Positions 12,673 to 40,765 of a stretch of 64,000 nt of DNA are shown one piece after another (position 1 is the stretch's first letter; the number at the start of each line of letters is the position of its first letter). The notes under the pieces were generated by a model, which worked only from the letters and a program-made list of their open reading frames with translations, did not search any database and was not told where the DNA came from. The stretch comes from Lacticaseibacillus rhamnosus (lineage in GTDB: Bacteria; Bacillota; Bacilli; Lactobacillales; Lactobacillaceae), in contig NZ_LR134331.1 of the NCBI RefSeq assembly GCF_900636965.1, positions 1,488,001 through 1,552,000 of the forward strand, in the 5' to 3' direction. A program made the translations under genes and the position numbers.

Positions 12673-12907
12673 GCCGATGCTGCTCATAAACGCGCTCACA
12701 GGCCCAGAAACCTGCACCTAAGGAAAATGGCCAAAGAAGGTTTGGGCATTGGACAGTGAAATAGAAGTTGGCCGATGCTGCTCATAAACGCGCTCCCCAG
12801 CGCAGAAGTCTGCGTGTAAGGACCTTGAGACTAAATGGCCAAAGACCAGCCATTTAGTCTCAAGGCCACTTACACTCCGACTTCTAACCGCGCTGGCTCG
12901 CGCTCTC
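12673..12907. repeat. Long-palindrome repeat family, cluster A (one half copy, one full copy)
   Basis: The full copy (12784-12907) folds end to end: CGCGCTCCCCAGCGC pairs with GCGCTGGCTCGCG, AGAAGT..TGTAAGG with CACTTACA..ACTTCT, and the core CTTGAGACTAAATGGC with GCCATTTAGTCTCAAG exactly. The half copy (from 12673) has only the first arm up to about 12730, and the shared lead-in GGCCGATGCTGCTCATAAAC recurs 98 bp later. The full copy begins directly after the T-run of the rnpB terminator when read on the minus strand. Orientation is the reverse of clusters C, D and E. Confidence 0.85.
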
Positions 12908-12937
12908 AAAAAAACAGCCCGGGTTTCCCCGGGCTGT
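12908..12937 (-). terminator. rnpB terminator
   Basis: On the minus strand ACAGCCCGGG pairs with CCCGGGCTGT around a 4-base loop, followed by seven T. Confidence 0.92.
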
Positions 12938-12942
12938 GCCTG

Positions 12943-13322
12943 CATGTAGATCCCTATAAGCCATGTTTTGTTCCAGAACCTGTTCAGGCGCGGGTTCCTT
13001 CAGTCATCATCTATCTCAGCGTTGCCGCTGTATTGCCGTTGCTTCAGTTTGCTTGGCAAAACGCCCCTACCAAAAGTTTGGGTTACTCGCTCGCGGGGTT
13101 TACCCGTTCCACCGTTCAGGTTTCCCTGAACGTTTCGTCACTGTGGCACTTTTCAGACCTACTGACGCATAACCGAAGTCTTAGCGTGGTTGGCCGCCGT
13201 AACCGTTCTCACGGTCCCTAAGCTTATTGGGCTTAGCACGAACACTACAAGCATCGCAGCTTGTGCGGGCATGGACTTTCCTCAGCCTGCAGATGCAGAC
13301 CGCGATCACTCAGGATCTACAT
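12943..13322 (-). ncRNA. rnpB: RNase P RNA (class B, Firmicutes)
   Basis: The catalytic RNA of RNase P, which trims 5' ends of pre-tRNAs. On the minus strand the hallmark GAGGAAAGTCCATGC lies about 50 bases from the 5' end. The ends pair as P1 (TGTAGATCC with GGGATCTACA), which sets the boundaries to within a few bases. The distal conserved block near the 3' end and the AGGAACCCGC-like segment are also present. It is about 380 nt. It starts 8 bp after the gpsB stop, the same neighbour as in Bacillus, and ends at a strong terminator. Confidence 0.96.
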
Positions 13323-13329
13323 GTGATCA

Positions 13330-13728
13330 TTAATACTGGTCAACGTCGGAATGGTTGCTGTCGTCGCGGTTATCAACACTGCCGCTATCTGACAGTTTTG
13401 AACCGAAAACATGCCGTTCCAAATTACTCAGACGTTTAAGAATATCATAATTTGTTGCCGCAGCATTGGTTTGCGGTGTTTGTGCGCTGACATTCTTGGA
13501 AACACTCAGCTGTTTGGTCAGCTCATCGACCCGGCTAAACAGCTTTGCATTTTCTTCTTTCAACCGATCAATTTCATTGGTGAAAGCCTCATAGTCACGA
13601 ATGATGCCGTCTAAGAATTCATCGACTTCATCCGGATCATAACCACGAACCTTGTTTTTGAACTTCTTGTCCAAAATATCTTTAGGCCCGTACTGGATAC
13701 TAAATTTTGTTTCTTTGTTACTATCCAT
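13330..13728 (-). CDS. gpsB: Cell division regulator GpsB
   Basis: A 132-residue DivIVA-like protein that links penicillin-binding proteins to the divisome. The N-terminal lipid/PBP-binding domain shows DILDKKFKNKVRGYDPDEVD (about residues 15-34) with the conserved turn and the tyrosine/aspartate positions that hold PBP peptides. A coiled coil follows (about 40-75, FLDGIIRDYEAFTNEIDRLK), then a Ser/Asn linker and a short helical C-terminal trimer domain (YDILKRLSNLERHVF). ATG 13728 follows a GAGGTG site; upstream in-frame ATGs lack one. It sits next to rnpB and near the class A PBP gene, which is its likely partner. Confidence 0.95.
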   Translation of the reverse strand: MDSNKETKFSIQYGPKDILDKKFKNKVRGYDPDEVDEFLDGIIRDYEAFTNEIDRLKEENAKLFSRVDELTKQLSVSKNVSAQTPQTNAAATNYDILKRLSNLERHVFGSKLSDSGSVDNRDDSNHSDVDQY

Positions 13729-13783
13729 TCCGACACACCTCATTGTTTTCATGGAACCAGACTACTAATTAGCTTACCATATC

Positions 13784-14359
13784 TCAATCATTTTGAAAAT
13801 GCTCATTTTCAGCTTCTGCCAATTCTTCGGATGTTTCTTGTAAATCATCCATCGTAATCAGTGTTACCGGATAATCACGTCGATTAGCCATGTCTTCGGC
13901 GGCACGGTAATCCCACTGCGGTTTTCCGGGAAATTCCGGATCATAGACAATCACTGCCGCATCTGTGTGTGCCGTCATAAACCGCGTATAACCTTGAAGT
14001 TGGGCGGGCTTTTGATAAGGTGCTTGTGAGACTGCATCAGAGAAATCAACTTGCTGGCGTAATGCAGCCAGTTGGGCCTTATTGTTGTCATTCCACTGAC
14101 TACCAAAGTCGGTAAATGGCAACATCATCGCAATCTTAAACTCAGGATAGAGCGGTTTAAGTGTTAAGGCAACTTCGATGGACCACTGTTCAACCCCCAG
14201 TTGACCGCCTGTAATCAGCCAGTTGAGCCCTTCATCAAGAAACTGGGTCAGCGTGTTTTTTAATGAAGTTTTAAGGACTTTCAGTTTTGGATCCTGAGCC
14301 CCAAAAACATTGAGCTCATAGGCACGGTAACCGGTTATCCATAACCTTTTTCCTGCCAT
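13784..14359 (-). CDS. ypsA: SLOG-fold protein YpsA (DUF1273)
   Basis: A 191-residue member of the YpsA/DUF1273 family with a SLOG nucleotide/ligand-binding Rossmann fold. Seen: WITGYRAYELNVFG at the start, LITGGQLGVEQWSIEVA (glycine-rich ligand loop, about 47-63) and TDAAVIVYDPEFPGKP (about 127-142). In Bacillus and Staphylococcus YpsA affects cell division, which fits the gpsB neighbour. ATG 14359 is preceded by GGAGGGA. It is divergent from recU with only 66 bp between, so the two share a promoter region. Confidence 0.92.
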   Translation of the reverse strand: MAGKRLWITGYRAYELNVFGAQDPKLKVLKTSLKNTLTQFLDEGLNWLITGGQLGVEQWSIEVALTLKPLYPEFKIAMMLPFTDFGSQWNDNNKAQLAALRQQVDFSDAVSQAPYQKPAQLQGYTRFMTAHTDAAVIVYDPEFPGKPQWDYRAAEDMANRRDYPVTLITMDDLQETSEELAEAENEHFQND

Positions 14360-14425
14360 GATTTCCCTCCAATCATTAGGCCAACGCGCTTGATATTGGT
14401 ATAATAGCGCCAGGAGTGTGATCGC

Positions 14426-17354: not shown

Positions 17355-17416
17355 GATTTTTTCACGTGATTTGACCATCAAGAGTTTTCCCTGATGAGGA
17401 TTGCCGGACATCATTA

Positions 17417-17464
17417 AAAAAGCACCGCTACTGATTTGAGATGGTCAGTAGCGGTGCTTTTTAT
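17417..17464. terminator. Bidirectional terminator between pbp1A and dCMP deaminase gene
   Basis: AAAAAGCACCGCTACTGA pairs with TCAGTAGCGGTGCTTTTT around about 10 bases, with A/T runs on both sides, serving the two convergent units. Confidence 0.92.
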
Positions 17465-17472
17465 ATGTGAAA

Positions 17473-18584: not shown

Positions 18585-18638
18585 ACAGGTTCCCCCTTTT
18601 AAAATCGGCTTGATTGTGATTCCGGTACTGCCTAATAG

Positions 18639-19259: not shown

Positions 19260-19273
19260 GATAGGGATCCTCC

Positions 19274-19304
19274 AAAAAAAGCCGGCGCGTTGGCGTCCGA
19301 CTTT
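19274..19304 (-). terminator. Hairpin with T-run between asnS and dnaD
   Basis: On the minus strand AAAGTCGG-A-CGC pairs with GCG-CCGGCTTT (one bulged A) and runs into TTTTTTT. It may partly separate asnS from dnaD. Confidence 0.7.
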
Positions 19305-22410: not shown

Positions 22411-22779
22411 GCCAATGCTGTTCGTAAGCGCGCTCACAGGCCTAGAAACCTGCGCGTAAGGACCTTGATTCCAAATGGCCAAGGTGTAGTTAGCTCGTGC
22501 AACTTTTTGGTTAATGAAATAGTGTTGGCCGAAGCTGTTCGTAAACGCGCTCACAGGCCCAGAAACCTGCGCATAAGGACCTCAAACCCAAATGGCCAAG
22601 GTGTGGTCAGCTCGGCAACTTTTTGGTTAGTGAAATGGTGTTGGCCGATACCTTTCGTAAACGCGCTCACAGGCCCAGAAACCTGCACATAAGGACCTTG
22701 ATTCCAAATGGCCAAAGCCCGGCCATTTGGAATCAAGGCCACTTATGTTCCGGTTTCTAAACGGGCCTGTTCGCGCTCT
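22411..22779. repeat. Long-palindrome repeat family, cluster B (two half copies, one full copy)
   Basis: Three units begin at 22411, 22528 and 22644 (period 116-117 bp). Each opens with a GCC-A/G-ATGCTG-like lead, then CGCGCTCACAGGCC-AGAAACCTGC and TAAGGACC. Only the third (about 22656-22779) has its second arm: CTTGATTCCAAATGGC pairs exactly with GCCATTTGGAATCAAG. The first two stop after the first arm and share a spacer with AACTTTTTGGTTA-TGAAAT. The last arm runs into the 3' end of dinG. Confidence 0.85.
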
Positions 22780-25558
22780 TGTTTCTTAACCACATTCTAA
22801 TGTAACCCGGAATATCGGTGAGTGGCAATGTCATTGGTTTAATATTTGGTAAGGATTTTTGCATTTTCTTACCATACGCGGTGGTGATGAAGCGTGGATC
22901 GAGGATGATGAAGGCGCCGCGGTCGGTTTCGGTGCGGATGAGGCGGCCGAAGCTTTGACGCAGCCGCAAGATCGCACGCGGTAGGGCATCTTCTGTGAAC
23001 GGATCGCCGCCGCTTAATTGAATCTGACGGTATCGGGCTTTGGTGATCGGCGCTTCAGGCGCATCAAAGGGCAACCGCGTTAGAATGACGATTTCAAGCA
23101 GTCGATCGGGATAATCAATGCCTTCAAAAAAGCTTGCTGCCCCTAATAGTAAACTCTGGTCGCCAACTGCAAACCGTTTGGCAATTTTTTCCGCTGAACC
23201 GGTGACCCCTTGAGCCAATAGCTCTTTATGCCCGGCAATTGGTCGATGGATCAAACGTTGGTAGACGGCCTCAATGACGGATAAAGAATTAAATAAGACA
23301 ATCGTTTGATATTGATTATCCGCCAGTTGTTCAATGGCCATCGCTAAATAATCAGCGTAGGCATCATCCGAGACGTCTGCGGCATGAGGAGCATCTGTTG
23401 CCACTAAAACCTTGGCCTGATCGCGATAATGAAATGGACTGCGGAGTTTTAAGAAGCTGGATTCCGGTAATTTGTGATAGCCTAATTGGGCAGTTAGAAA
23501 ATCAAATGAACGCTCAGCCGTCAAGGTGGCACCGACGAATACTGGCGCTTCAAAATGATGAATCAGTTGCTGAACGGCAGATCCGACTTGGAAAACATCC
23601 CAACTTAATTCCAGACTCGCCACATCGGTAATCTGGCGTAAATTAACGGACATCATCACCGCCTGCCCGGCAATTAAATCCGGCAACCGGCTTAGTAACT
23701 CTTGAAGAAGCCGGCGATGATCTGCCAAGGCGATTCGCAGCGCTGCTAACGCTTGAAACTGCTGACCATCGCTTTTTAAGAAGAAATGCGGTCGGCGGTT
23801 AAAATCAGCAATTAATTTGTCAGTTGTGACCGTCAACCGCCCGAGAACCTTAATGAGCGATTTGATGGTGGTCGTTTGTGTCTGTTCGAGCCACTTGGCC
23901 GCTGCTGAATCCAAACTTAAGTTCACAAAACCTGAAGCTGCAGTTGTTTTGCCAAAAAAGAAGTGGCGATGGATCTGACGCTGCAAGGTATTCACAGCCG
24001 TCTCGGCAGTGGCTGCCTGTTGATTCAGTTGCTGTAACACCGTTAGCATGGCAGGTTCACTTTGATAAATCGCAGTCAAAGAATGCCGTTCGTCTGGTTC
24101 ACTCAATTGCCATACACGATGCAAATGATGATTTAAGTGGTCAAGCGCCACCCGCCGTGCAAACGCGGCAGCAGTATTGTCGGCAAAGTGCTGCGCCTCA
24201 TCGACCACTAGAAATGGCCGTTTAAATGGTAACGTGTCTGCATGCCGTGAAAGAAACGCGTGGTTTGTTACCACCACCACTGCGTCAGCCAATTTAGCCT
24301 GCAGCCGCCGATAAAAATCGAACGTATAAAAAGGATTGATAAATGGCGTGCCAACATCACCGGTATGCCGGATTTCAGCAAACAACGGCGCGCGATAAGT
24401 GGTTAAATGCAGCTCATCTAAATCTCCTGTCGTTGTTTGAGTCAGCCATACCAGTAATTTCATTTGCAACAGTTGGGTTTGGCGAGTCGGTCCTTCTTGG
24501 TGAAGACTAGCGGCAAATTTATTGAGATCAAGATAATGCTGGGGACTTTTCAGCTCAACCGTGGGTAACGTGCGCCCAAGCAAGGCATCAAGTGCGGGAA
24601 TGGCTTGCGTTATCAGCTGCGTTTGCAAAACCAGGGTTGACGTTGCCACAACCAACTTGTGCTCAGGTGTGGCAAGGTAAGCATAAGGCAGTAAATAGCC
24701 CAACGTCTTTCCCAAGCCAGTCCCTGCTTCGATGAATAATGGTATTTCGGTTTTTTGCGCATGCGTGAAAATGGCATCCATCATCTTGGCCTGTGCTTTA
24801 CGAAAGCGATAGCGCGGCTGTAGCAGATGTTTTTTGGCTAGTTCGGTTGCTGGATAAGCGCCAGCCGCTGCCAAATCGGTTGGTGTAGTCATCGGCCGAC
24901 GTAACACCAATGGCCCGACCTGAACAAATTCTTTTTTTAACGGTCTGGGAGGTGACGCGATCATTTTCAGATAATCACCGGTTTCGCGAATAAAGCCATC
25001 GTGACGCTGAATCAAGGCCTGTTGCGTTGGTGTCGGTAAGGCCTGAAAGCGCGCCTTTAGTTGCAACAGTAGTTTCGCGGTACTGGTAGCGTCACTATCG
25101 GCTTGATGCGGGTTGTCATGTTGGATCGCAAAATGAGTCGTCAAATCACTGAGTCGAAAACTGCTGATTTCTGGAAGTAACACCTGTGCCAACTCAACAG
25201 TATCAATCGCCTCAAGCTGTAATTTTGGTAAACCGATACGCTCAAACTCTGCATTTAGAAACGGATAATCAAAATTAACATTGTGCGCCACAAAGACCGT
25301 CTTAGTTAGCACTTGGTGAAGCGCGGGCGCTACCTCATCAAAATATGGCGCCGCGACTAACCGTTCAGGGCTGATTCCGGTCAACCGCTGGATCGTCTGC
25401 GGGACTGACCGATCCGGGTTGATCATTTGTGAAATTGTTTGAATGATCTTGCCATGGCGCACCAAAGCACAACCGAATTGAATCATACGGTCGCCGTCTT
25501 TGACACTGGTTCCGGTTGTTTCCAAATCAACCACAGCAAAAGTGGTGTCAGCATTCAT
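22757..25558 (-). CDS. dinG: DinG-family 3'-5' exonuclease/helicase-like protein
   Basis: A 933-residue protein with an N-terminal DEDD exonuclease domain (FAVVDLETTGTS with D11/E13, HNVNFDYPFL, HQADSDATST; about 1-170) joined to an XPD/DinG-like superfamily 2 helicase domain: Walker A EAGTGLGKT near residue 275, VVDEAQHFAD near 451, and motif VI RLRQSFGRLIRTETDRG near 870. The iron-sulfur cysteines of E. coli DinG are absent, as in the Bacillus/Staphylococcus type, where the exonuclease part is the active one. The last seven codons (KSANRPV) and stop lie within the arm of repeat cluster B, so the C-terminal tail was changed by that element. Start ATG 25558. Confidence 0.94.
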   Translation of the reverse strand: MNADTTFAVVDLETTGTSVKDGDRMIQFGCALVRHGKIIQTISQMINPDRSVPQTIQRLTGISPERLVAAPYFDEVAPALHQVLTKTVFVAHNVNFDYPFLNAEFERIGLPKLQLEAIDTVELAQVLLPEISSFRLSDLTTHFAIQHDNPHQADSDATSTAKLLLQLKARFQALPTPTQQALIQRHDGFIRETGDYLKMIASPPRPLKKEFVQVGPLVLRRPMTTPTDLAAAGAYPATELAKKHLLQPRYRFRKAQAKMMDAIFTHAQKTEIPLFIEAGTGLGKTLGYLLPYAYLATPEHKLVVATSTLVLQTQLITQAIPALDALLGRTLPTVELKSPQHYLDLNKFAASLHQEGPTRQTQLLQMKLLVWLTQTTTGDLDELHLTTYRAPLFAEIRHTGDVGTPFINPFYTFDFYRRLQAKLADAVVVVTNHAFLSRHADTLPFKRPFLVVDEAQHFADNTAAAFARRVALDHLNHHLHRVWQLSEPDERHSLTAIYQSEPAMLTVLQQLNQQAATAETAVNTLQRQIHRHFFFGKTTAASGFVNLSLDSAAAKWLEQTQTTTIKSLIKVLGRLTVTTDKLIADFNRRPHFFLKSDGQQFQALAALRIALADHRRLLQELLSRLPDLIAGQAVMMSVNLRQITDVASLELSWDVFQVGSAVQQLIHHFEAPVFVGATLTAERSFDFLTAQLGYHKLPESSFLKLRSPFHYRDQAKVLVATDAPHAADVSDDAYADYLAMAIEQLADNQYQTIVLFNSLSVIEAVYQRLIHRPIAGHKELLAQGVTGSAEKIAKRFAVGDQSLLLGAASFFEGIDYPDRLLEIVILTRLPFDAPEAPITKARYRQIQLSGGDPFTEDALPRAILRLRQSFGRLIRTETDRGAFIILDPRFITTAYGKKMQKSLPNIKPMTLPLTDIPGYIRMWLRNKSANRPV

Positions 25559-28600: not shown

Positions 28601-29312
28601 GCTCATCCGCTTGCGTCAGCGTGGTAAATACTTGCATGAGTTTGCGCTTGGTTCGCGGCCAAATCTGGTGCGTGAAGGTCGCCGCCCAAGCTTCTGGTGC
28701 ATAAGGCTTTGCCAGTTGTTGCAAGTAAGCTTTAGGATCGGTTGTGGCAGCAGCTTGGCGCATTAACTCGAACATTAAATCCTGAAGGCCACTATCATCC
28801 CGATCGCCGCTAAAGTTAGCGGTCAATTGCTCGAATTCCGCCGCTTCGTCACCAGCATAAAATTGTTCGCGCAAATCGTTCCAAACCTGTTCTTGTAACA
28901 TATAGCGCTCAGTTTCATCAGTCAGTAATCGAAAGCCTGGATCTAAATCGATAACATAGTAATAAGTTTGGACGATTTGCAAGCTAAACGCATCCAACGT
29001 ACTGATTTTGGCTGCATTCACCATGGCAATCTGGTTGGCCAGATGGCGCCGATCCTCAGCATTTAACTCATGTCGCTTGGCGGTCAGTGTTTGCTTCAAG
29101 GCAGTCTGAATCTTAGTCCGCATTTCCGAAGTTGCCGCTCGCGTAAAAGTCACGATCAACATTCTGGTAATATCGGCGTGTTGTTTGAGAATCTTTTGAA
29201 TAATGCGTTCAACTAATACAGTGGTCTTGCCGCTGCCAGCCGAGGCTGATACCAACATATCATGGCCGTGATGGCTAATGGCAGCTTGTTGCGATGGGGT
29301 AAATTGCGTCAT
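25602..29312 (-). CDS. addA: ATP-dependent helicase/nuclease subunit A (AddA/RexA)
   Basis: The 1236-residue UvrD-like motor and nuclease subunit of the RecBCD-equivalent complex, which resects double-strand breaks up to a Chi-like site. Walker A is SASAGSGKTTVL (22-33), Walker B is MVDEYQDISPLQ, motif III is GDVKQSIYGFR, motif VI is LYVALTRAQQRLYV, and the C-terminal RecB-type nuclease motif is TLFDYKTDH near residue 1185. In lactic acid bacteria the gene is called rexA. Overlaps addB by 4 bp (ATGA), so the two subunits are made together. Confidence 0.97.
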   Translation of the reverse strand: MTQFTPSQQAAISHHGHDMLVSASAGSGKTTVLVERIIQKILKQHADITRMLIVTFTRAATSEMRTKIQTALKQTLTAKRHELNAEDRRHLANQIAMVNAAKISTLDAFSLQIVQTYYYVIDLDPGFRLLTDETERYMLQEQVWNDLREQFYAGDEAAEFEQLTANFSGDRDDSGLQDLMFELMRQAAATTDPKAYLQQLAKPYAPEAWAATFTHQIWPRTKRKLMQVFTTLTQADELANRLPNPVWHQQITADLNPLQSLLDNPEPSYEAVRDALVQHDFLAWSRASKGLDDDDKALKNEAKQLRDAAKKIWQDQLAPDFALTSEQITDLLRTVQPMMTMLTEVALTFLDALTAEKAVRHVQDYSDIAHNALRILQQKDPQTGAPIADNYRASFDEVMVDEYQDISPLQEALLAAVSTTDPGDRFMVGDVKQSIYGFRLADPQLFIQKYQAFANHPETPTAPERIILAENFRSTKNVLAFTNLIFSQIMDPEVGDLAYDDNAALKYGALDYGDCHPAVKVMLYSKATSDDDDETDATSDWSATDEDDEPLDVATGQTQMVIAEIQRLVSDPHAQLWDRANQQYRRIRYRDITLLTRQTTQNSLIQTQFAAAGVPLFVADTKNFFKTTELMVMLALLKIIDNPKQDIPLVAVLRSPIVGLSADQLALIRLAAKQVPYYDAVTAFLTGTPTTPLAKRTHATLAAFLDQLNHFRDLARENDLVTLLWAIYQETGFLDYVGGTPGGSQRQANLLALVDRARTYESGGFKGLFAFIHFITLMQKQDQDLATPAQVDPDNDAVKLMTIHKSKGLEFPVVFVLQTNKHFNRRDQSGPAILTKNGIGIKWLDPQTRVEYELPQYQAAKAARQNQTLAEEMRLLYVALTRAQQRLYVVGATMSGQQLTSADKTVAKWAKAAEGEQLTLAPQIRGAATNYLDWIGPALIRHPQVKGLTETTVKPALIADPTEFSIAIETHPQIKVGVATKTPAKTDAPAIDLTGWFAKQYPFQAATTTAGFQSVSEIKRAFDDPDTMELVSADRFLGQKPPLHDLSAPAFLTETSGGGNAAAIGTATHLLLQLVDLTKPITLNSLEALRHHLITTGVMPAEVAKRIDLTALVRFFATDLGQLLQAKPQQVQREVPFSMLLPANQLFEILQNDPGEDVLVHGIMDGYVTEADGVTLFDYKTDHEPDPAKLVARYRGQLNLYAQALAQLQPEPVTHRYLVLLRTGTIVDLVAESTGK

Positions 29313-32300
29313 GACTGTGGATGCTCCTTTTCAGAATGCGGTATTTGTGTCGGGTCAGCGGTAAGGCGTCCGATCACGTCTTTACGCTTTAACTTAGGGA
29401 CGTGATGGTAATGATCAAAACCGGTTGCAGGGTCAAACAGCATAATACTTTGATAGTCGCTGCGACTGACAATCGTGGAAGACTGGCCATATTGGAAAGG
29501 CTCAAGTGCAATATCCCCAGCGAGAATTTGCGTGGCTGCATCGATAATCAGCGCCTGATTGTGAGCCAAATAAGCCCGCAACGCCTCGGGAGTCAGGACG
29601 TTTGACTGATTTTGATTGAAACTGCCATCTTTTTTAAAGCCAAGCGGTGCAATCTCACTACGACCGCCACTTTCCGGTGAAATGGTACGATCCACGGCCG
29701 CCAGCTCATCTCCGTGTTCGGCGACTAAGAACCCCAGATACTTGAAGGCTTTGAGTCGCTCAAGTGCCGGTTCCAATTCAGGCGTGTATTTGAGTTTAGG
29801 ATCCTGCAAGTGAAAATACAGCGCCCCCGCCGGAACAAACGGTGGCTCTGCTGTCACGTTGGTCATTGCTTCAATGTAAGTCAGCATTTGCAAGGCAATG
29901 CCATAATAAGCGTCACTATCATCGAAGCGGCGTTGCCCACTTTTATAATCGACAATAATAAAACGCCGGGCATCAGGTTCGCGATAAATATCAAGCCGAT
30001 CGATTTTACCGTGAACATTGACGCGACCCCCATGCGGCAACGGCCATGATAAGCCTGGCAGTCCCTTGGTATCGCCAATCCGGCCAAACTGCAGCTCGGT
30101 GCGCACCGGGCGGAAGCCGCTGCGTTGCTGTTGCTGGCGCATGTTGAGCAAAACCTGAATGAGCAGTCGACTTAAGCGCTTGGTCAAATAAGTCATGCGA
30201 TACGTACTGCCGAGGATTTCATACCCCGGCTGTTTGGCAATCTCGGCAACCATTGGCGGTACGGCAGCCATGATCGCCGCGGGTTCAACATCGGCCAAGT
30301 TTTGTTGTTGATCACGCAATTGCGTTAAATACCGATCAAGTACAGCATGAAAAAGACTACCGGTGTCGGCTGGTGAAAGCTCAAATTCCGGTCGCGGTTG
30401 GAGCAGCAAACCATATTTAAGGAAATATTCGAAATGATTAAGATAATACGTCTCCAATCGCGACACGGAAACATTCATATCGCGGCCATAGAGTTGCACC
30501 GCCAGCTGTGGATCAAGGCGGCCAGGATCATTTTGATACGTCAAACTTCCGGCAAGGCGTTGGGCCAGGTTGGCTAAATCGGTTTGTTTCAATGCGCTTA
30601 ACACACTTTGCCAAGCCAGACTCAGGGGTTGTTTTTGCTGTTGGGCATCACCGGCAGCCCGAATGAAGTCGCTTAACATTGCCCGCGGGCTGCCAAGGAC
30701 AGATTTGACCGTTGTCGCGAGTGTTACCGGCGCCCAGGTTTCGGGCACGAGATGAAGCGCCCGTTTCAGTTGCTGAAAATAAGGTGACGCCTGATTTTCA
30801 CTATTTTCTTGCGGGTTTTGCATGGGGTAACTTAGCGTCAACGTCTCGCTGGCGGCCATGAAGCCCAAATAGTTGATAAACGGATCACCTAAAGTTGTTG
30901 TTGGACCTTGCTCGGGTAAAAAGCGGTCATCCGGCAACTGTGCAGCTAATAATTGGCGCTCTTCACTGTTTAAAACGCCGTCATCATTGGGAACATCCGG
31001 CATGGCGGTGCTGGTGGCCCCGATAACAAAAACATGTTTTGCTTTGGCTAATCGGACTAACCCGGTTTCTGAAATCACAACCGCGTCAAGTGTGGCCGGA
31101 ATCTGTGTGTAAGTCGCACTGGCAAAGCCGGCAGCAAGCAACTCATGAAATTGCTCGCGATTAAACTTAGCGTTGCCCAAAATGGTAACGTAATCATCCA
31201 GCAAAGCGGTAAATGTGGTCCATGCTTGTTCGTGCGCTCGACTGCGAGCAAGCTCACCGGCTGCACTTGCTGCTTCTCGCCACGCGTTCAACTGGTCCAC
31301 TACCCCAATTTTCGTTAACCAGTGGTACAAACTTCGCGCAGCCTCAAGTCCGGTTTTAGCTGCCTGCCATTGTTTGAGTAAGGCCGGCACAGTTTGAGCC
31401 ACCAGCGTTTTTATGGCATTGATTTGAGCGGTTTTATCGGCTTCAGGATCCATTTCTGTCTCATCAGCAGCGGGATTACGCTGAAAATACCGCCATGGTT
31501 CTGTCTGTGTCCAGCGTCTTTTACCTGCAATCCCTGTTCGAACCAAATGATTGTCGAGGGTATCGACGGCATCACGAAAATCTGCCACCGCCATCCCCTG
31601 AGGCAACAAAAGCTCAGTATGCAACAAGCGCATGATGTCTTGATACTGATAGTCATGATCCTGGATGGCAAATAGGCTTTCGATTAACACCACCAAGGGA
31701 TGATCCTTCATCGGCCGCTGCAAGTCGGTAAATTGTGGAATCTGAAATTCAGCAAAAATAGCCGGAATGATCGTTGCGTACGGATCTAATCGCCGAGCAA
31801 TAATCACAAAATCCCGATAACGTGCTCCGTTGCGAACCGCTTGATAGATAGATTGGGCCACATGCCGCAATTCCTGATAGGGATCAGTCGCAGTGGCTAA
31901 ATGCACATGATCGGCAACATTTGCGGTTGGCGCCGGCTGCGGTTCGATATTGGTATTAGCCTGCCACCAACTCGCCACCTGTCGCATGCCCAAGCTTAAG
32001 TGCCGTGGCTGAGCAAACCGATCCAACCGAATTGGAATTCGCATCGTTTTGGCTTTTTGATACAAACGATGATAAAGCCGACCAGCAGGTAAAAAGAGAT
32101 TAGGAGCCACAGGCGGTGCAGTTGGATAAGGCCGATCCAACACGAGGCCGATCGTCACTTCTGCGGCGGTTTCCAGCATCGTTTCCACCAGTGCTGACTC
32201 TGAAGCAGAAAATACGTTAAAATGGTTGAGATAGATAAACGTGTGGGTGAGATCATGGGTACGCATGGCTTGCTGCAGCCCACTTAGCAGACTGGCGGTT

Positions 32301-32848
32301 GTCGCATAAGGACCGATTTCTGCTTCATATTGATCAAGAATAATGCCTAAATCACGCAACTTAGCCCGGTGCCGATCGCCTGGTGTCAGAGCCGCAACGG
32401 TATTGGCTAAGTCTTCGGCGGTAATCCGGCCAATCATGAGTTCACTCAATTGGCCAGCAAGCTGTGTGACAAACCCAGTGTGCTGAGCTTCTCCGGCATA
32501 AATGGTTAAGTCCGCTTGCCGTTCTGCAAGAATTTTGGCAACCAGCATCGTATTGCTAGCTTGATCCAGCCGTGGTTGCTGATAAAGCGGCGTGTTCTTC
32601 AAATAAAACCAGGCCAGCCGGGAAAAGGATAAGACCTGAACGCGACTTTGCACGTAAGTCTCCGAGTTCCCCTGTTGCAATTGGCGCAAGCGTTTGAGAA
32701 GATCAATTTCTGCTTCAAATTTAATATGGTTCGGTACCAGTAAAAAAATCCGGTTTTGGGAATCAGCGGTAAGCTTTTCATGAATCATAGCCGCCATGGT
32801 TTGGGTATGATCCGTCGTTGCATCACCGAGAATAAACTGCAACCCCAT
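29309..32848 (-). CDS. addB: ATP-dependent helicase/nuclease subunit B (AddB/RexB)
   Basis: The 1179-residue partner of AddA. It has an inactive helicase-like N-terminal region and a C-terminal RecB nuclease (FIIVDYKSGQRRF near residue 1000). Start: ATG 32848 with TAGGAGG 8 bases upstream; the reading frame stays open to 33076 through repeat cluster C, but those codons are repeat sequence and lack a ribosome site. The four cysteines that hold the 4Fe-4S cluster in Bacillus AddB are missing: the upstream site reads SVSRLETYYLNHFEYFL and the C-terminal site STIVSRSDYQSIMLFDP, and I find no cysteine in the protein. Cluster loss is therefore complete rather than partial. Confidence 0.95.
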   Translation of the reverse strand: MGLQFILGDATTDHTQTMAAMIHEKLTADSQNRIFLLVPNHIKFEAEIDLLKRLRQLQQGNSETYVQSRVQVLSFSRLAWFYLKNTPLYQQPRLDQASNTMLVAKILAERQADLTIYAGEAQHTGFVTQLAGQLSELMIGRITAEDLANTVAALTPGDRHRAKLRDLGIILDQYEAEIGPYATTASLLSGLQQAMRTHDLTHTFIYLNHFNVFSASESALVETMLETAAEVTIGLVLDRPYPTAPPVAPNLFLPAGRLYHRLYQKAKTMRIPIRLDRFAQPRHLSLGMRQVASWWQANTNIEPQPAPTANVADHVHLATATDPYQELRHVAQSIYQAVRNGARYRDFVIIARRLDPYATIIPAIFAEFQIPQFTDLQRPMKDHPLVVLIESLFAIQDHDYQYQDIMRLLHTELLLPQGMAVADFRDAVDTLDNHLVRTGIAGKRRWTQTEPWRYFQRNPAADETEMDPEADKTAQINAIKTLVAQTVPALLKQWQAAKTGLEAARSLYHWLTKIGVVDQLNAWREAASAAGELARSRAHEQAWTTFTALLDDYVTILGNAKFNREQFHELLAAGFASATYTQIPATLDAVVISETGLVRLAKAKHVFVIGATSTAMPDVPNDDGVLNSEERQLLAAQLPDDRFLPEQGPTTTLGDPFINYLGFMAASETLTLSYPMQNPQENSENQASPYFQQLKRALHLVPETWAPVTLATTVKSVLGSPRAMLSDFIRAAGDAQQQKQPLSLAWQSVLSALKQTDLANLAQRLAGSLTYQNDPGRLDPQLAVQLYGRDMNVSVSRLETYYLNHFEYFLKYGLLLQPRPEFELSPADTGSLFHAVLDRYLTQLRDQQQNLADVEPAAIMAAVPPMVAEIAKQPGYEILGSTYRMTYLTKRLSRLLIQVLLNMRQQQQRSGFRPVRTELQFGRIGDTKGLPGLSWPLPHGGRVNVHGKIDRLDIYREPDARRFIIVDYKSGQRRFDDSDAYYGIALQMLTYIEAMTNVTAEPPFVPAGALYFHLQDPKLKYTPELEPALERLKAFKYLGFLVAEHGDELAAVDRTISPESGGRSEIAPLGFKKDGSFNQNQSNVLTPEALRAYLAHNQALIIDAATQILAGDIALEPFQYGQSSTIVSRSDYQSIMLFDPATGFDHYHHVPKLKRKDVIGRLTADPTQIPHSEKEHPQS

Positions 32849-32870
32849 GTGAAAACCTCCTAAGGAAAGT

Positions 32871-33142
32871 GAGCGTGAGCCGGCGCGGTTAGAAGTCGGA
32901 GTGTAAGCGGCCTCAGACGTGATGGCCCGGATTTGGCCATTGCGGCTGAGGTCCTTACACGCAGACTTCTGCGCCGGGGAGCGCGTTATAGAAAAGTGAG
33001 CGCGAGCCGGCGCGGTTAGGGATCGGAGTATAAGCGGCCTTGGGCGTGATGGCCGGGCTTTGGCCATTGCGACCAAGGTCCTTGTACGCAGATCCCTGCG
33101 CTGGGGAACGCGTTATAGAGTGAGCGCGAACCAGCCCGGTTA
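32871..33142. repeat. Long-palindrome repeat family, cluster C (two full copies, one partial)
   Basis: Full copies at 32871-32989 and 32998-33116 and an outer-arm fragment at 33121-33142, head to tail. Arms pair as AGAAGTC with GACTTCT in copy 1 and as AGGGATC with GATCCCT in copy 2; inner arms are CTCAG with CTGAG and CTTGG with CCAAG. The cluster sits 22 bp in front of addB and about 250 bp before the divergent mvk. The remaining 33143-33389 must hold the mvk promoter; nothing else was recognised there. Confidence 0.88.
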
Positions 33143-33389
33143 AAACCTACCCCAACCCGCATGTTGCGATGTGAGAAAACCACTAGCACAGCAGCCCCAG
33201 TACAAAGACGACCTTAATTTTAATCGTCATTCTCTTAAACCGCCTACTTAAAGGCTACCGCACCAACAAAAACAGTCTCACTATTTAAATACGTGTGCCT
33301 GATGACTTATGCTTTAGTCTAGCATAACTAAGTAGTGTCCGATCAGGGTTTGCGCTATCATAAGTAAAGAATATTAACGAGGTGTTTAT

Positions 33390-34325: not shown

Positions 34326-34332
34326 GGCTGCT

Positions 34333-36337: not shown

Positions 36338-36352
36338 TTTTAGGTCAATAAC

Positions 36353-36404
36353 AAAAGGATGCTAGTAAACAGACAATACCTAGCCTGTCACTAACATCCT
36401 TTTT
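36353..36404. terminator. Bidirectional terminator between fni and the RNA methyltransferase gene
   Basis: AAAAGGATGCTAGT and ACTAACATCCTTTTT pair, with a second helix inside (ACAG with CTGT). A and T runs on both sides serve the convergent genes. Confidence 0.88.
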
Positions 36405-36443
36405 GATTACTTTTTAAGATGCTGATACTAAATTGCAAGCCAA

Positions 36444-37775
36444 CTAAACTCGCAGCCCTTTTGGATAGAAATTCTTAACCGTTCCATTGACTAACTTGCC
36501 GATTGCAAACGGCTTATGTTCAAACGTGAGTAAGACGAATCGTTTCCCTGACAGCGAGGTCGTGAGCGTTTCGCCATGACGGTAGCGCGCATAACCATCG
36601 GCATCCACCTCAATCACGGTTTGAAAATCAGCCGGATCCAGCGCAGTTGCGATACTGTGGCTGGGTTCAAACCTGTTTTTACGGAAACTCCCAAGTTCAA
36701 GCCCCGCGCGAACCACCTTCACTCGGTCAAACGGAATCATGGTTTTCGGGAGTAACGACAGGAAGTCCCCGTGGCGGTAAAATTGTCCGGTCAACGGCTT
36801 ATGCAAGCTGGTCGAGAAAAAAGTGGTCACTTCATCCCGCGCGGCTTTCACTAAAGGTTTTATCTTTAGCGGTTTTACTGGTTCGTTCGGCAATTCACCC
36901 GCAAGTCGCAGTTTGGCAACGAAATGGCCTTCACCGCGTACGAGATGTGGAAACAGCCGCACTGTTTTTGCCAATTCAGGATTGCCATCTGCCCATTCCG
37001 GTCGACCAGCAACCATTCCTGGAGACTTTTTAATGGGTTCGAGCGTCAAATCGTAGTGAGCAAGCAGCCAAGCAATGATTTGTTCGTCTTCTTCCGGACT
37101 GAACGTGCAGGTTGAATAAATCAAACTTCCGCCTGGCCGCAGCATTTTAATCGCCGCTTGCAGAATGACTTTTTGTCTTGCCGCACATTCTGCTGGGTAG
37201 TCGCGGTGCCAATACTGAATTGCATCTGGATCTTTGCGAAACATCCCCTCACCGGAGCAAGGCGCATCGACCAAAATCCGATCGAATGTCTGCGGCCAGG
37301 CTGCGGCTAACGTATCCGGATCATTATTGGTCACTAAAATATTCCGACTCCCCCAACGTTCGAGATTACCGGAAAGGACCTTCGACCGCGGCCCGTTTAT
37401 TTCATTGCTGACCAGTAACCCGGTTTCACCAAGATAACTAGCCAATTGCGTGGATTTACCACCAGGAGCGGCACATAAATCCAACACGCGCTCCCCTTTT
37501 TGCGGTGCCGCGACTGTCCCGACAAATTGCGCACTGGGTTCTTGGCTATAAACCAGCCCGGAAACGTGATCAATTCCGTTTCCGGCAACTTTGCCATAAT
37601 ACCCCCAAGGACTCCAAGGAATGGGATCCGTGGTCTTTTCGTCTAATGGCCAAGGTTTAGCCGGATCGCGCCGGAATCCCGCCATTGGTTCGTCATCAAA
37701 ACTAGCCAAAAAAGCCGAGGCGTCCGCTCCTAATAACTGGGTATATTTTTCTTTAAACGCTTCAGGAAGTTGCAC
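36444..37775 (-). CDS. RsmF/NSUN-type RNA cytosine-5 methyltransferase
   Basis: A 443-residue NOL1/NOP2/sun family enzyme methylating C5 of cytosine in rRNA or tRNA. It shows VLDLCAAPGGKSTQLA (SAM motif I, about 107-122), the VDAPCSGEGMFRKDP motif IV with one active cysteine, and IYSTCTFSPEEDEQI motif VI with the catalytic cysteine. A C-terminal RsmF-like and PUA-type part follows (about 290-443). The start is a GTG at 37775, with AAAGGA 9 bases before it, inside the 3' end of the membrane protein gene (14-bp overlap), so it is translated as part of that unit. Confidence 0.9.
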   Translation of the reverse strand: MQLPEAFKEKYTQLLGADASAFLASFDDEPMAGFRRDPAKPWPLDEKTTDPIPWSPWGYYGKVAGNGIDHVSGLVYSQEPSAQFVGTVAAPQKGERVLDLCAAPGGKSTQLASYLGETGLLVSNEINGPRSKVLSGNLERWGSRNILVTNNDPDTLAAAWPQTFDRILVDAPCSGEGMFRKDPDAIQYWHRDYPAECAARQKVILQAAIKMLRPGGSLIYSTCTFSPEEDEQIIAWLLAHYDLTLEPIKKSPGMVAGRPEWADGNPELAKTVRLFPHLVRGEGHFVAKLRLAGELPNEPVKPLKIKPLVKAARDEVTTFFSTSLHKPLTGQFYRHGDFLSLLPKTMIPFDRVKVVRAGLELGSFRKNRFEPSHSIATALDPADFQTVIEVDADGYARYRHGETLTTSLSGKRFVLLTFEHKPFAIGKLVNGTVKNFYPKGLRV

Positions 37776-38718
37776 TTGTTCGATCCTTTCTCCGAATCAA
37801 ATATCGCAGGAAAACAACGGTCGCAATCGTTAAAATAATTAAGAAACCCCAGATGCTGGCGCGGGTCGTATAGTAAAACCACCAATTGGCAAACAAACCG
37901 CCAAGCAGCAAACTGATGCCGACGTGGCTGGCACAGCTCGACAAGACGCCGCGCAAATACCGCGCACGCATGTTGATTTCTAGTCCCGATGTCTGCAAGG
38001 GTCCGATGAGCACCACCATTAGGACGCTCAGCAAACCTGCCCCTAACAATAAAAGCACACAGAATAAAGCTGTCTGGCCGTATGCGCGCCACCAGGTTGC
38101 GGCATTGCTATCACTGAAATGAACCCGATGAACTTTATTGGCGCGCAGAATGCTTTTAAGCGCTTTTCCATGCTGATTTGCACCGTCTACATAGACTTTT
38201 ACCTGCTTGAGGCGTAATCCACCGTTTGCGGTATTGGGTGACGCATTAAGAAATACCGCCTTGTTCAGCGGACTACCCTTACGCGTGCCCACAGTTCCCA
38301 ACACTGGAACATATTGATCATTCACGCTCAAATAACGCTGATTATTGCTGCCAGTGTAGAGTTTATCCGCTAAGTCGTGACCGACAACCGTAACCGGTAA
38401 ACTTGATTCAAAATCGCCATTCGAAAACCATTGACCAGTTTCAACCGGCAAGCTCGCAACCGTTCCACGCTGATACACGTAGACCACTTGCTTACTCACA
38501 AACTGCACCTGATACCCCGAAAAGTCAGTCTTTGCCAGCTCCGCAACCGCAGTCGTCACCCGCCGCTGACTCTTCGTCACATATTCCTGGGCAGTCTCAG
38601 ACATACCAAGATGATCCAGCTGACTGGCATATTCATTTTGATCATGCTGCGACCACACCAAACCAGCCAAAATTGCCAAGCCGATCCATAGTAAGTCGAT
38701 TAAGAATAGTTTCTTCAC
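37762..38718 (-). CDS. FtsX/MacB-like membrane protein, no ATPase partner
   Basis: A 318-residue membrane protein. One helix at the N-terminus (about 5-23) is followed by a roughly 190-residue extracytoplasmic domain and three helices near the C-terminus (about 213-237, 256-277, 284-303). This is the topology of MacB/FtsX permeases. The outer domain carries segments typical of MacB core domains (PVETGQWFSNGDFESSLPVT and VPVLGTVGTRKGSPLN). No ABC ATPase gene is adjacent; the next gene, translated in overlap, is an RNA methyltransferase. The start at 38718 has AGGAGG upstream and follows repeat cluster D by about 20 bp. The transported substrate, if any, is unknown. Confidence 0.7.
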   Translation of the reverse strand: MKKLFLIDLLWIGLAILAGLVWSQHDQNEYASQLDHLGMSETAQEYVTKSQRRVTTAVAELAKTDFSGYQVQFVSKQVVYVYQRGTVASLPVETGQWFSNGDFESSLPVTVVGHDLADKLYTGSNNQRYLSVNDQYVPVLGTVGTRKGSPLNKAVFLNASPNTANGGLRLKQVKVYVDGANQHGKALKSILRANKVHRVHFSDSNAATWWRAYGQTALFCVLLLLGAGLLSVLMVVLIGPLQTSGLEINMRARYLRGVLSSCASHVGISLLLGGLFANWWFYYTTRASIWGFLIILTIATVVFLRYLIRRKDRTSATS

Positions 38719-38739
38719 AGTGGCCTCCTTAGGAAAAGT

Positions 38740-38884
38740 GAGCGCGAGCCGGCGCGGTTAGAAGTCGGAGTGTAAGTGGCCACAGACGTGATGGCTGGTC
38801 TTTGGCCATTGCGGCTGTGGTCCTTACACGCAGACTTCTGCGCCGGGGAGCGCGTTATGGTGAGCGCGAGCCGGCGCGTTATAG
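38740..38884. repeat. Long-palindrome repeat family, cluster D (one full copy, one collapsed copy)
   Basis: The full copy (38740-38858) has AGAAGTC with GACTTCT and the inner arm CACAG with CTGTG, a third version of the inner pair. A collapsed copy (38861-38884) keeps only GAGCGCGAGCCGGCGCGTTAT, that is the two outer ends joined with the middle deleted. It lies between two minus-strand genes. Confidence 0.87.
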
Positions 38885-38920
38885 AAAAGTGAGCCCACAC
38901 ACTAAAGCCAACTCCGCCCA

Positions 38921-39664
38921 TCACTGCAACCGATACACCCGTTCATGAATTGCATCAAAATGACCCAATGCGCGATTCAATGCAAAGATTCGGCGATCAG
39001 GTACCATCATCGCCTCCTGCCAAAATAACCGGCTATTGGTCGCACCATAGCGCTCGCCAATCACAAACAATTGCTTATCAGGAAAGTATCGTTGCATGAT
39101 ATGTAAAAACCGCACATCATTGGGGTCTTTATCTGGGCTCCATGCCATGACCACCGCATCAACTTGTGCCGCATATAAAAATAAAGCTGCATTGGCGGTA
39201 GCGGTTTTCACTGGCACTAATGGTTGGCGGCCGGTGACATTTTCCGCAACCCATGTATGAGCATCGGTGGTAATAGTCGGATTTCCTTGATCACGTAATC
39301 CTGCACTGACATAGCCATTGCCCGCTGCGACTTCCAGATAACGTTGACGGCCATACAACTGTTGCCACGTCGCGAAAAAATCTTTATGCACAAACGACCA
39401 CATACCATCATGAAACGCAATGTACCGCCTAAAATTGTGAAGCAGATGATCCAACGCCATCAAATCGGCCAATTTGGCTCCCGGCAGTAACAATGCCTGT
39501 TCAATTTGAGGGGTGGTTAACCCCAGCCACGGCAAGGCATGTTGCGGTAATTGCTGGTTGGCAAGCGCAAGCCGCCACGCTGTCATGGCTGCGATTTGTT
39601 TTTTTAACGGTGAAATTGCCTGATATTTTTCAGCCAGTTGTAAGAGTCGTGTCCAGTAAGCCAT
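38921..39664 (-). CDS. SAM-dependent methyltransferase-like protein
   Basis: A 247-residue soluble protein I cannot name. An N-terminal helical part (about 1-100) is followed by RYLEVAAGNGYVSAGLRDQG (about 129-148), which resembles the SAM-binding motif I, then ITTDAHTW where the acidic residue that binds ribose would be, and VDAVVMAWSPDKDPNDVRF as a motif IV-like strand. This suggests a Rossmann methyltransferase-like fold in which the last part (VIGERYGATNSRLFWQEAM) covers the active site. Substrate unknown; it may also have lost activity. Start ATG 39664. Single gene between a terminator and repeat cluster D. Confidence 0.6.
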   Translation of the reverse strand: MAYWTRLLQLAEKYQAISPLKKQIAAMTAWRLALANQQLPQHALPWLGLTTPQIEQALLLPGAKLADLMALDHLLHNFRRYIAFHDGMWSFVHKDFFATWQQLYGRQRYLEVAAGNGYVSAGLRDQGNPTITTDAHTWVAENVTGRQPLVPVKTATANAALFLYAAQVDAVVMAWSPDKDPNDVRFLHIMQRYFPDKQLFVIGERYGATNSRLFWQEAMMVPDRRIFALNRALGHFDAIHERVYRLQ

Positions 39665-39730
39665 CCTAACCTCATATTCTAAATACTGGCAGCTACTTAG
39701 CTAACCCTTTTTTCGCGCAAAAGAACAGGC

Positions 39731-39756
39731 AAAAGCCGCCATGAACGGCGGCTTTT
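39731..39756. terminator. Bidirectional hairpin terminator
   Basis: AAAAGCCGCC and GGCGGCTTTT pair around ATGAAC. It lies 24 bp after the SufT-like gene and ends that unit on the minus strand. Confidence 0.85.
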
Positions 39757-39779
39757 GCAACAGGGGCAACAACCTCGTA

Positions 39780-40130
39780 CTAATGAATGCCCAGTGCCAT
39801 CTTAGCATACCGACTAAGACGTTCCGGGCCCCACGCTGGGTACCAGACAAGGTGAATCTCAACGCTTTGGATCCCGTCAATCGCCGTTAACGCCTGCTTG
39901 ATATCGGCATCAAGCATATCGGTCAACGGGCAACCCATGGTGGTAAGGGTCATTTCAACCGTACATTTACCATTTTCATCCAAGTCCACCCCATAGATGA
40001 GGCCAAGGTTAATCAGATCGATCCCCAACTCCGGATCAATCACGGTTTCCAATGCATCCAGGATCTGCTGTTTCATTTTATCAAAATAGGCCTGGTCTTG
40101 GGTGGCGGCTTGATCATGCGTATTTGCCAT
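39780..40130 (-). CDS. sufT: SufT/MIP18-like (DUF59) metal-sulfur cluster assembly factor
   Basis: A 116-residue DUF59 protein. The signature is VIDPELGIDLINLGLIYGVD (about 26-45), then VEMTLTTMGCPLTDML with the conserved reactive cysteine (about residue 70), and VEIHLVWYPAWGPERLS near the end. In Firmicutes the family (SufT) helps mature iron-sulfur proteins under high demand. No suf genes are in the window. ATG 40130 has GGAAGGGA upstream. It follows the tautomerase gene by about 33 bp and probably shares its transcript. Confidence 0.85.
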   Translation of the reverse strand: MANTHDQAATQDQAYFDKMKQQILDALETVIDPELGIDLINLGLIYGVDLDENGKCTVEMTLTTMGCPLTDMLDADIKQALTAIDGIQSVEIHLVWYPAWGPERLSRYAKMALGIH

Positions 40131-40163
40131 CAGCAGTCCCTTCCTTTCTGAACATCTTCAGGA

Positions 40164-40352
40164 TTATTTCTTGTCTTCTTCAAGCACACCGGCAACTGAA
40201 TAATGGTTCTTGGCCATTTCATTCAGGACAATATGGACATGCTCAGCCGGCGCTCCGGTGTCCTTAACAATGGCGGCGGTAACATCTTTGACCAGTGCTT
40301 TAAGCTGCTCCGGCGACCGGCCTTCAATCAAATCAATATGGACTAGTGGCAT
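40164..40352 (-). CDS. 4-oxalocrotonate tautomerase-like protein
   Basis: A 62-residue member of the tautomerase superfamily, the standard length for a 4-OT subunit. The start is set at ATG 40352 because it places the catalytic proline directly after Met (MPLVHIDLIEGRSPEQLKAL); the ATG one codon earlier would block it. The ribosome site AGGAGT fits. The conserved Arg near 11-13 is seen as GRS and the C-terminal half has the usual HIVLNEMAKNHYSVAG. Forms hexamers in the family; no aromatic degradation genes are nearby, so the natural substrate is unknown. Confidence 0.9.
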   Translation of the reverse strand: MPLVHIDLIEGRSPEQLKALVKDVTAAIVKDTGAPAEHVHIVLNEMAKNHYSVAGVLEEDKK

Positions 40353-40444
40353 CATGCTCCACTCCTTCAACTGAGAATAAGGTGCGTGTTAATCTGCTTT
40401 ATTTTAGCATGTGAAACACGTTTACGCACGTATGATCAAAAAGT

Positions 40445-40765
40445 AAGCGCGAGCCGGCGCGGTTAGAAGTCGGAGTGTAAGTGGCCTCAGGTGTGATGGC
40501 CCGGTTCTGGCCATTGCGCCTGAGGTCCTTACACGTAGACTTCTGCGCCGGGGAGCGCGTTATGGGCGTAAAGTCAAACTAGTGGCCTTGGACGTGATGG
40601 CCGGGCTTTGGCCATTGCGCCCAAGGTCCTTATACGTAGATCTCTGCGCCGGGGAGCGCGTTATGGGCGTAAAGGAGAAATAGTGGCCTCAGACGTGATG
40701 GCCCGGTTCTGGCCATTGTGTCTTAGGTCCTTACACGCAGACTTCTGCGCCGGGGAGCGCGTTAT
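40445..40765. repeat. Long-palindrome repeat family, cluster E (one full, two arm-deleted tandem copies)
   Basis: The full copy is 40445-40563. Copies at 40582-40664 and 40683-40765 lack the first outer arm and start at GTGGCC; they repeat with a 101-bp period and share the joint GCGTTATGGGCGTAAAG. Inner arms are CTCAGG with CCTGAG, CTTGG with CCAAG, and CTCAGAC with the weaker GTCTTAG. The cluster lies between the ABC exporter genes and the tautomerase gene. The rest up to 40910 is AT-richer and holds nothing recognised. Confidence 0.87.

What the first reader, a model, noticed from the sequence alone, without database searches (positions are those of the whole stretch)
12673..40765. Family of long palindromic intergenic repeats with compensating changes in the arms
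Five clusters (12673-12907, 22411-22779, 32871-33142, 38740-38884, 40445-40765) hold six full copies of about 120 bp and at least seven partial ones. Each full copy folds into one long hairpin. Inner arm pairs differ between copies but match within each: CTCAG/CTGAG, CTTGG/CCAAG, CACAG/CTGTG; in clusters A and B, GAGACTA/TAGTCTC against GATTCCA/TGGAATC; in the outer part AGAAGTC/GACTTCT against AGGGATC/GATCCCT. Such covariation means that the fold is kept by selection or by a copying process that repairs one arm from the other. It is denser here (about one copy per 5 kb) than an incidental repeat would be. It may be a REP/MITE-like element moved by a transposase elsewhere, or a structured RNA/DNA element.
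Basis: seen in the sequence. Interest (0 to 1): 0.75.

Follow-up and report, generated by a model that had tools for sequence, protein, structure and literature searches.

The report
Order-wide family of polar hairpin repeats
The window holds members of a family of about 120-letter DNA hairpins found in many lactic acid bacteria, whose two arms keep matching although their letters change, and which often sit in one-directional arrays flush against the edges of genes; how they spread is not known.

Summary
Six full copies and seven partial ones lie at the stated places; each full copy folds into one hairpin. The family is not confined to the window: at least 150 full-length matches in this 2.99 Mb genome (cap reached), 27 of 30 genomes of the genus, 22 of 74 sampled genera of the order. 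No Rfam family matches. Covariation is strong: 26 of 33 pairs show double changes in 19 copies from this and other genera. Arrays are polar: the first unit is on average the most intact, and its outer end often lies flush against a terminator, Shine-Dalgarno site or stop codon, the far end rarely. Unit content differs as a block at unchanged sites. No Y1 transposase or reverse transcriptase was found in this genome and no target duplication signal. Best reading: a REP/BOX-like hairpin repeat that spreads as a folded single strand, new units being laid at one end, kept palindromic by a DNA-level constraint or copying. What moves it is unidentified.

The parts
12785..12909 (-). full copy, site A; left end directly after the rnpB terminator T-run
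   Evidence: rnpB by Rfam
12687..12736 (-). partial copy of site A (inner part and 3' outer arm)
12910..12938 (-). rnpB terminator-like hairpin and T-run that the site A array abuts
   Evidence: read from sequence
22658..22780 (-). full copy, site B, inner stem of the longer GATTCCA type
22542..22614 (-). partial copy, site B
22426..22485 (-). partial copy, site B
32867..32991 (+). full copy 1, site C, directly upstream of the addB Shine-Dalgarno-like site
32993..33118 (+). full copy 2, site C, AGGGATC/GATCCCT arms
33119..33145 (+). fragment of a third unit, site C
   Evidence: family D4
32856..32861 (-). Shine-Dalgarno-like AGGAGG before the addB start codon (32846-32848)
   Evidence: read from sequence; the protein read from 32848 matches AddB (TIGR02773) from residue 1, below that model's curated cut-off
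38735..38860 (+). full copy, site D, CACAG/CTGTG arms
38859..38885 (+). fragment of a second unit, site D
   Evidence: family D4
38724..38729 (-). Shine-Dalgarno-like AGGAGG of the opposite-strand gene 37762-38718, abutted by site D
   Evidence: read from sequence; ORF
40440..40565 (+). full copy, site E
40581..40666 (+). 5'-truncated unit 2, site E (starts at model position 42)
40674..40767 (+). 5'-truncated unit 3, site E (starts at model position 34)

Best explanation
A family of non-coding mobile hairpin repeats. Each unit (about 120 nt) folds into a fixed shape: a 4-bp base, a 3x3 loop, 7 bp, a 4-nt bulge on the 5' side, 7 bp, a 3x3 loop, 7 bp, then a long inner hairpin. Shown: the shape is conserved while most stem letters change; near-identical units occur at different sites with unlike flanks; arrays are polar, with the most intact unit first on average and often flush against a gene boundary; sites are filled in some species and empty in others; some losses leave slippage-like footprints. 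Inferred: the unit spreads as a folded single strand handled by a structure-recognising enzyme that acts in trans and is not identified; new units are laid at the left end beside the old ones; selection on gene edges sets how far left an array can reach; pairing is required in the copies that spread (or restored by arm-to-arm copying), after which older units drift and collapse.
For: Arms of one helix share far more information than chance (helix H3: 2.10 bits against 0.63 shuffled, 0 of 2000 shuffles), with a larger excess than between neighbouring helices, though those are also linked (z up to 8.7). 26 of 33 pairs have double changes in 19 copies, 9 from the genus and 10 from other genera (the copies had been found with a structure model, which favours paired ones). 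Pair integrity along arrays: 0.978, 0.944, 0.899 for units 1 (n 96), 2 (47) and 3 or later (13); in 47 arrays with two or more full units the first was better than the last in 27, equal in 12, worse in 8 (sign test p 0.002). Left ends: T-run 37 of 97 against 6 of 97 right ends and 5.9% of 3987 random intergenic points; anti-Shine-Dalgarno motif 34 against 3 of 97 (random 7.1%). In 59 copies from other genomes a stop codon closing an open frame lies within 15 bp of the left end in 19, of the unit's right end in 2, and of 141 of 3540 random points anywhere in the same loci. One unit is identical at two loci, the identity ending near the unit ends; 16 of 12090 pairs reach 97%. The lev operon unit differs at many places between plasmids whose flanks are about 98% identical. 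Site C is empty in three relatives and holds units in the opposite orientation in a fourth.
Against: No mobiliser: PF01797 and PF00078 absent from the own genome. No target duplication signal in 46 arrays. No replichore strand bias in 150 copies (p 0.33; origin position assumed), which single-strand transposons often show (recalled). A G-T over A-C excess in first units (55 to 18) that would point to one folded strand rests on a few positions; by position it is 18 to 7, p 0.043, and it is about even in the outer helices. Gene conversion without any mobile enzyme could explain the block replacement. Linkers within an array are alike (8 of 17 first and second linkers identical), which suggests tandem duplication or in-place rewriting; one array holds two near-identical neighbours. 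The gained-at-the-left-end step was seen directly in one plasmid pair only, where loss from the other plasmid is as possible. A sizeable minority of left ends show none of the tested features.
Confidence: 0.48

Rival explanations
1. No mobile enzyme: long palindromes are cut or stall replication, and repair copies another unit from elsewhere in the genome. Ectopic conversion reshuffles units in place, and arm-to-arm template switching keeps arms matched.
For: Units within an array are no more alike (0.827, 72 pairs) than units of different arrays (0.821, 4967 sampled pairs), while linkers stay array-specific. Orthologous-site units are hardly more alike than others: 0.764 (24 pairs) against 0.732 (165), or 0.744 against 0.728 without the G005/G028 pairs. 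Block difference in the lev operon. No Y1 transposase, reverse transcriptase or target duplication found. G-T and A-C mismatches about equally rare in outer helices.
Against: Does not by itself fill empty sites, yet sites C, D and one near 8.8 kb are filled in some species and empty in others. Does not explain flush left ends. Arm copying should at times erase the unpaired loops, but these are kept across genera.
Confidence: 0.26
2. A host-functional structured RNA or mRNA element (terminator back-up, 5' leader hairpin, RNase III site) kept by selection on the first unit, later units being redundant.
For: First units are on average the most intact and many lie next to terminators or Shine-Dalgarno sites. 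Site A beside rnpB and site B are occupied in all five genomes compared.
Against: In 60 of 94 arrays the left gene is on the opposite strand, so the element strand is antisense to it; the three nearly fixed G-T pairs stay G-T on the element strand there too, and G-T against A-C counts do not flip between the classes (Fisher p 0.37). Orthologous sites are often empty, and site C holds either orientation. G-T is not in excess in the outer helices.
Confidence: 0.15
3. An ordinary DDE-type MITE whose partner insertion sequence is elsewhere or lost.
For: Dispersed, intergenic, inverted-repeat, small, present on plasmids of three genera.
Against: No target duplication signal; compensated stems with conserved internal loops and polar arrays are not typical (recalled); no listed gene lay under any of the 19 plasmid matches, though that gene table is incomplete.
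Confidence: 0.11

Closest known systems
REP / REPIN with TnpA-REP (RAYT) Y1 transposase
   Same: High-copy extragenic imperfect palindromes with conserved mismatches or bulges; REP is recognised as a folded single strand (PMC8266576, passages).
   Different: Units about 120 nt, not 20-40 (REP size: start of the abstract of PMC3733652 in the listing); no conserved GTAG at the left end; no PF01797 match in the genome.
BOX elements of Streptococcus pneumoniae
   Same: Modular intergenic repeats with variable numbers of internal modules; hairpin-forming (PMC3049150, passages). Streptococcus belongs to the same order (recalled).
   Different: BOX is reported with target duplications; here no signal. 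Module plan differs: full unit first, then full or 5'-truncated units. Sequences were not compared.
ERIC sequences (enterobacteria)
   Same: Imperfect palindromes of similar length (about 127 bp, recalled) in intergenic regions; reported copy numbers 30 to 711 (PMC10969869, passages).
   Different: Different taxa; no sequence comparison with ERIC was run. I know of no polar flush arrays for ERIC (recalled).
Integron attC sites
   Same: Strand-specific imperfect palindromes with unpaired bases, varied stems, and arrays that grow at one end (recalled).
   Different: No gene cassettes between units. The attC core motif and an integrase were not tested.
Palindromic hairpin repeats of organelle genomes
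   Same: Hairpin repeats described as selfish or invading (PMC2670323 and PMC2800124, search listing only).
   Different: Unrelated genomes; not compared.

Membership tests
REP/RAYT (REPtron) | Y1 transposase (PF01797) in the genome | tested here: not met
   0 matches in own genome; the same search rang in 5 of 14 control genomes
REP/RAYT (REPtron) | GTAG tetranucleotide beside the palindrome | tested here: not met
   before GAGCG/AAGCG the left end reads G in 72 and T in 87 of 96 arrays at the last two places, preceded by variable A/T-rich flank
REP/RAYT (REPtron) | strand-specific recognition as single-stranded DNA | not testable with these tools
   only indirect: weak G-T excess in first units
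DDE MITE | fixed-length target-site duplication | tested here: inconclusive
   no signal in 46 arrays, 17 of them single; plasmid 'empty' sites are deletion footprints, so no clean empty site of a close relative was at hand
DDE MITE | terminal inverted repeats shared with an insertion sequence | not tested
   no insertion-sequence library was searched
BOX | boxA-boxB(n)-boxC module plan with target duplication | tested here: inconclusive
   plan read here is full unit first, then full or 5'-truncated units; no duplication signal; no sequence comparison with BOX was run
Group II intron or other retroelement derivative | reverse transcriptase in the genomes rich in copies | tested here: not met
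   PF00078 absent in G000, G005 and G017; one match each in the copy-rich G006 and G028, and matches also in the copy-poor G008, G010 and G012
Known Rfam RNA family | match at gathering score | tested here: not met
   only RNase P in the window; at site E two microRNA matches far below their gathering scores
ERIC | sequence similarity to the enterobacterial consensus | not tested
   consensus not fetched
Integron attC | attC core motif and integron integrase | not tested
   neither was searched

The most novel reading that the evidence does not exclude
A hairpin DNA family spread across the order Lactobacillales that needs no transposase (or uses an unknown enzyme), adds units at one polar end flush against gene boundaries, and keeps its arms matched by a DNA-level process rather than by RNA function: a mode of repeat growth that I know from no REP, ERIC, BOX or MITE description (recalled; searches).
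Probability: 0.3. Interest if true: 0.8.

Novelty: new variant of a known kind. Interest (0 to 1): 0.62.

Why it matters
How ERIC- and BOX-like intergenic palindromes spread is, as far as I know, unsettled (recalled). This family offers over a hundred copies in the richest genomes, plasmid pairs with replaced, extra and collapsed units, and a clear polarity. That makes two questions testable in food bacteria: what moves such palindromes, and how their arms stay matched. It may also serve as a source of typing markers.

Tried and rejected
Rfam membership: none. REP-type transposase: none in the own genome. Reverse transcriptase: absent from three of the five copy-rich genomes, present once each in the other two, so retro-copying was dropped as a present-day cause. 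A mobiliser gene flanked by arrays: the genes at four loci looked ordinary by eye; no family search was run on them and other close pairs were not read. Target duplication: no signal. Lagging-strand insertion: no strand bias. Tandem duplication as the main source of arrays: not borne out by unit content, but linkers keep a trace of it. RNA-level selection through neighbouring transcripts: weakened. I first took the 55 to 18 G-T over A-C excess as strong evidence for one folded strand; the per-position check reduced it to a weak hint. Phage records: none by blastn; viral contigs: none by one exact 25-base pattern. An exact 37-base pattern found nothing in genome contigs, where records very near this genome may be left out. 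Literature: nine searches; none of the papers listed was, by its title or abstract start, on this family. Three of them listed only part of their hits (15 of 717, 15 of 17, 8 of 32), and most subscription journals are not held, so an earlier description cannot be excluded. Rows dropped: 30 of 119 clusters were not fetched; of 224 hits 156 were full units; 2 of 98 arrays had no left anchor, 4 of 98 no gene context, 1 of 98 no flank. The seed alignment of the profile came mostly from the best matches to one unit, which are mostly first units; this can favour first units in the score and loop measures, less so in pairing. The 59 copies from other genomes are one per fetched locus among 72 matches, picked among each genome's best matches; several of them (for example L136, L141, L165, L183) visibly follow another unit and so are not first, and the right end there is that of the unit, not of the array.
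Full report
Check of the observation. A profile built from family members finds six full and five partial copies in the window; two shorter fragments bring the partial ones to seven. The six full copies each fold into a single hairpin of about -75 to -83 kcal/mol, 0 of 200 shuffles as good in each case; two 5'-truncated copies folded with them gave z -2.4 and -0.7. The only hit in Rfam at gathering scores for the whole window is RNase P at 12952-13317.

Range. In the window's own genome (2.99 Mb, one contig) 150 of the 150 candidates that were scored, out of 1620 of the first look, matched the full length of the covariance model R1, so 150 is a floor; they form 119 clusters. In the family, 54 of 251 genomes and 18 of 40 genera matched R1 at E 1e-7. 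In the order, 36 of 295 genomes and 22 of 74 genera matched R2 at E 1e-6. The last two searches used stricter filters, and most genomes had no match. Copies or pieces also sit on 19 plasmid records of Lacticaseibacillus, Pediococcus and Lactiplantibacillus, with no listed gene under them. None was found in 50,697 phage records.

Shape. Copies from the genus and other genera keep one plan: a 4-bp base, 3x3 loop, 7 bp, a 4-nt bulge on the 5' side, 7 bp, 3x3 loop, 7 bp, and a long inner hairpin, with small departures. Of 33 consensus pairs in 19 such copies (9 from the genus, 10 from other genera), 26 show changes on both sides that keep the pair; the copies had been found with a structure model, which favours paired ones. 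In the own genome the third helix occurs as AGAAGTC/GACTTCT 54 times, AGAAACC/GGTTTCT 29, AGGGATC/GATCCCT 19 and in several rarer matched forms among 156 full units. Each arm predicts its partner arm far better than chance, and with a larger excess than it predicts neighbouring helices, which are also linked. So the covariation is not just whole copies inherited together. Three G-T pairs are nearly fixed (149, 139 and 136 of about 156). Apart from these, the units hold 6009 Watson-Crick, 129 G-T, 96 A-C and 109 other cells. In later units G-T and A-C are even (68 and 73); in first units they are 55 and 18, but by position only 18 against 7 (p 0.043), and about even (15 and 14, my sum) in the three outer helices. 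I read this as a constraint or copying at the DNA level, with at most a hint of one preferred strand.

Arrays and polarity. From loci that cover 89 of the 119 clusters, and the window, I recovered 98 arrays with 224 hits; 96 of 98 arrays begin with a full unit, followed in most by full or 5'-truncated ones. Pair integrity falls from 0.978 (first, n 96) to 0.944 (second, n 47) and 0.899 (third or later, n 13); among 47 arrays with two or more full units the first was better than the last in 27, equal in 12 and worse in 8. Units of one array are as different from each other (0.827, 72 pairs) as units of different arrays (0.821), yet the short linkers within an array are alike, 8 of 17 identical.

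Flush left ends. Seen along the unit, the left end lies next to a T-run in 37 of 97 arrays (right end 6 of 97; random intergenic points 5.9% of 3987) and next to an anti-Shine-Dalgarno motif in 34 of 97 (right 3; random 7.1%). The start codon of an opposite-strand frame with a Shine-Dalgarno-like site lies 6-26 bp away in 32 of 94 left ends and 1 of 94 right ends. Some of the remaining left ends seem to stop just upstream of a promoter; that is my reading of the flanks, not a tested count. In 59 copies from other genomes, a stop codon closing an open frame lies within 15 bp of the left end in 19, of the unit's right end in 2, and of 141 of 3540 random points anywhere in the same loci; T-runs and Shine-Dalgarno sites were fewer there (7 and 6 left, 4 and 0 right). 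Several of those 59 are not the first of their array, and their right end is often another unit, so this control is softer than the one in the own genome. My reading is that the flanks share being the last needed base of a gene's edge, not one sequence motif.

Turnover. Units at the same site in different species are hardly more alike than unrelated ones: 0.764 (24 pairs) against 0.732 (165), or 0.744 against 0.728 leaving out the two closest species. On plasmids the lev operon carries one of two very different units between flanks about 98% identical; one man-operon plasmid has an extra full unit at the left end compared with another; the close relatives of these sites that look empty are footprints of deletion inside the hairpin. 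Two chromosomal loci share an identical unit whose identity ends near the unit ends.

Mechanism. What is shown: near-identical units at unlike sites, polar decay, presence or absence at orthologous sites, structural constraint across an order. What is inferred: spread through a folded single strand, arrival at the left end, an unidentified enzyme or host repair activity. The own genome has no PF01797 match and no PF00078 match (none in G005 and G017 either, one each in G006 and G028). No target duplication signal was found. Ectopic conversion without any mobile enzyme is the strongest rival and may act alongside. On rereading the calls I lowered the main reading slightly (0.50 to 0.48) because the left-end gain was seen directly in one plasmid pair only.

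Known families. By behaviour it is closest to REP, BOX and ERIC elements. It fails the two REP features that could be tested; BOX and MITE tests were inconclusive, ERIC and attC were not tested (see membership table). I take BOX, MITE and REP facts from passages of PMC3049150, PMC10969869 and PMC8266576. I file it as a new variant of the known kind 'dispersed intergenic palindromic repeats', not as a member of any named family.

Noticed in passing
window 29312-33118: Site C lies directly upstream of addAB, the genes of a double-strand-break repair helicase-nuclease; one relative has units there in the opposite orientation and three relatives have none.
   Followed up: partly
window 40911-44489: A segment with an ABC-transporter-like gene next to site E did not align in place in the four relatives compared, which continue from about 40431 to 44489; only a 67% similar piece turned up elsewhere in the fetched stretch of one of them.
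   Followed up: no
L115, L117-L121: Collapsed hairpins on plasmids, in some cases between short direct repeats inside the palindrome, look like natural footprints of palindrome loss.
   Followed up: partly
L018, L024, L089, L092 and other own-genome loci: The 5'-truncated units share a GGGCGTAA-like linker in place of the lost outer arm at many loci, so the truncated unit looks like a module of its own.
   Followed up: partly
G370:C1:36788-36914 (L185): A single strong match (3e-21) in a genome of another family of the order, on a contig of 104,612 bases, may be a recent transfer.
   Followed up: no
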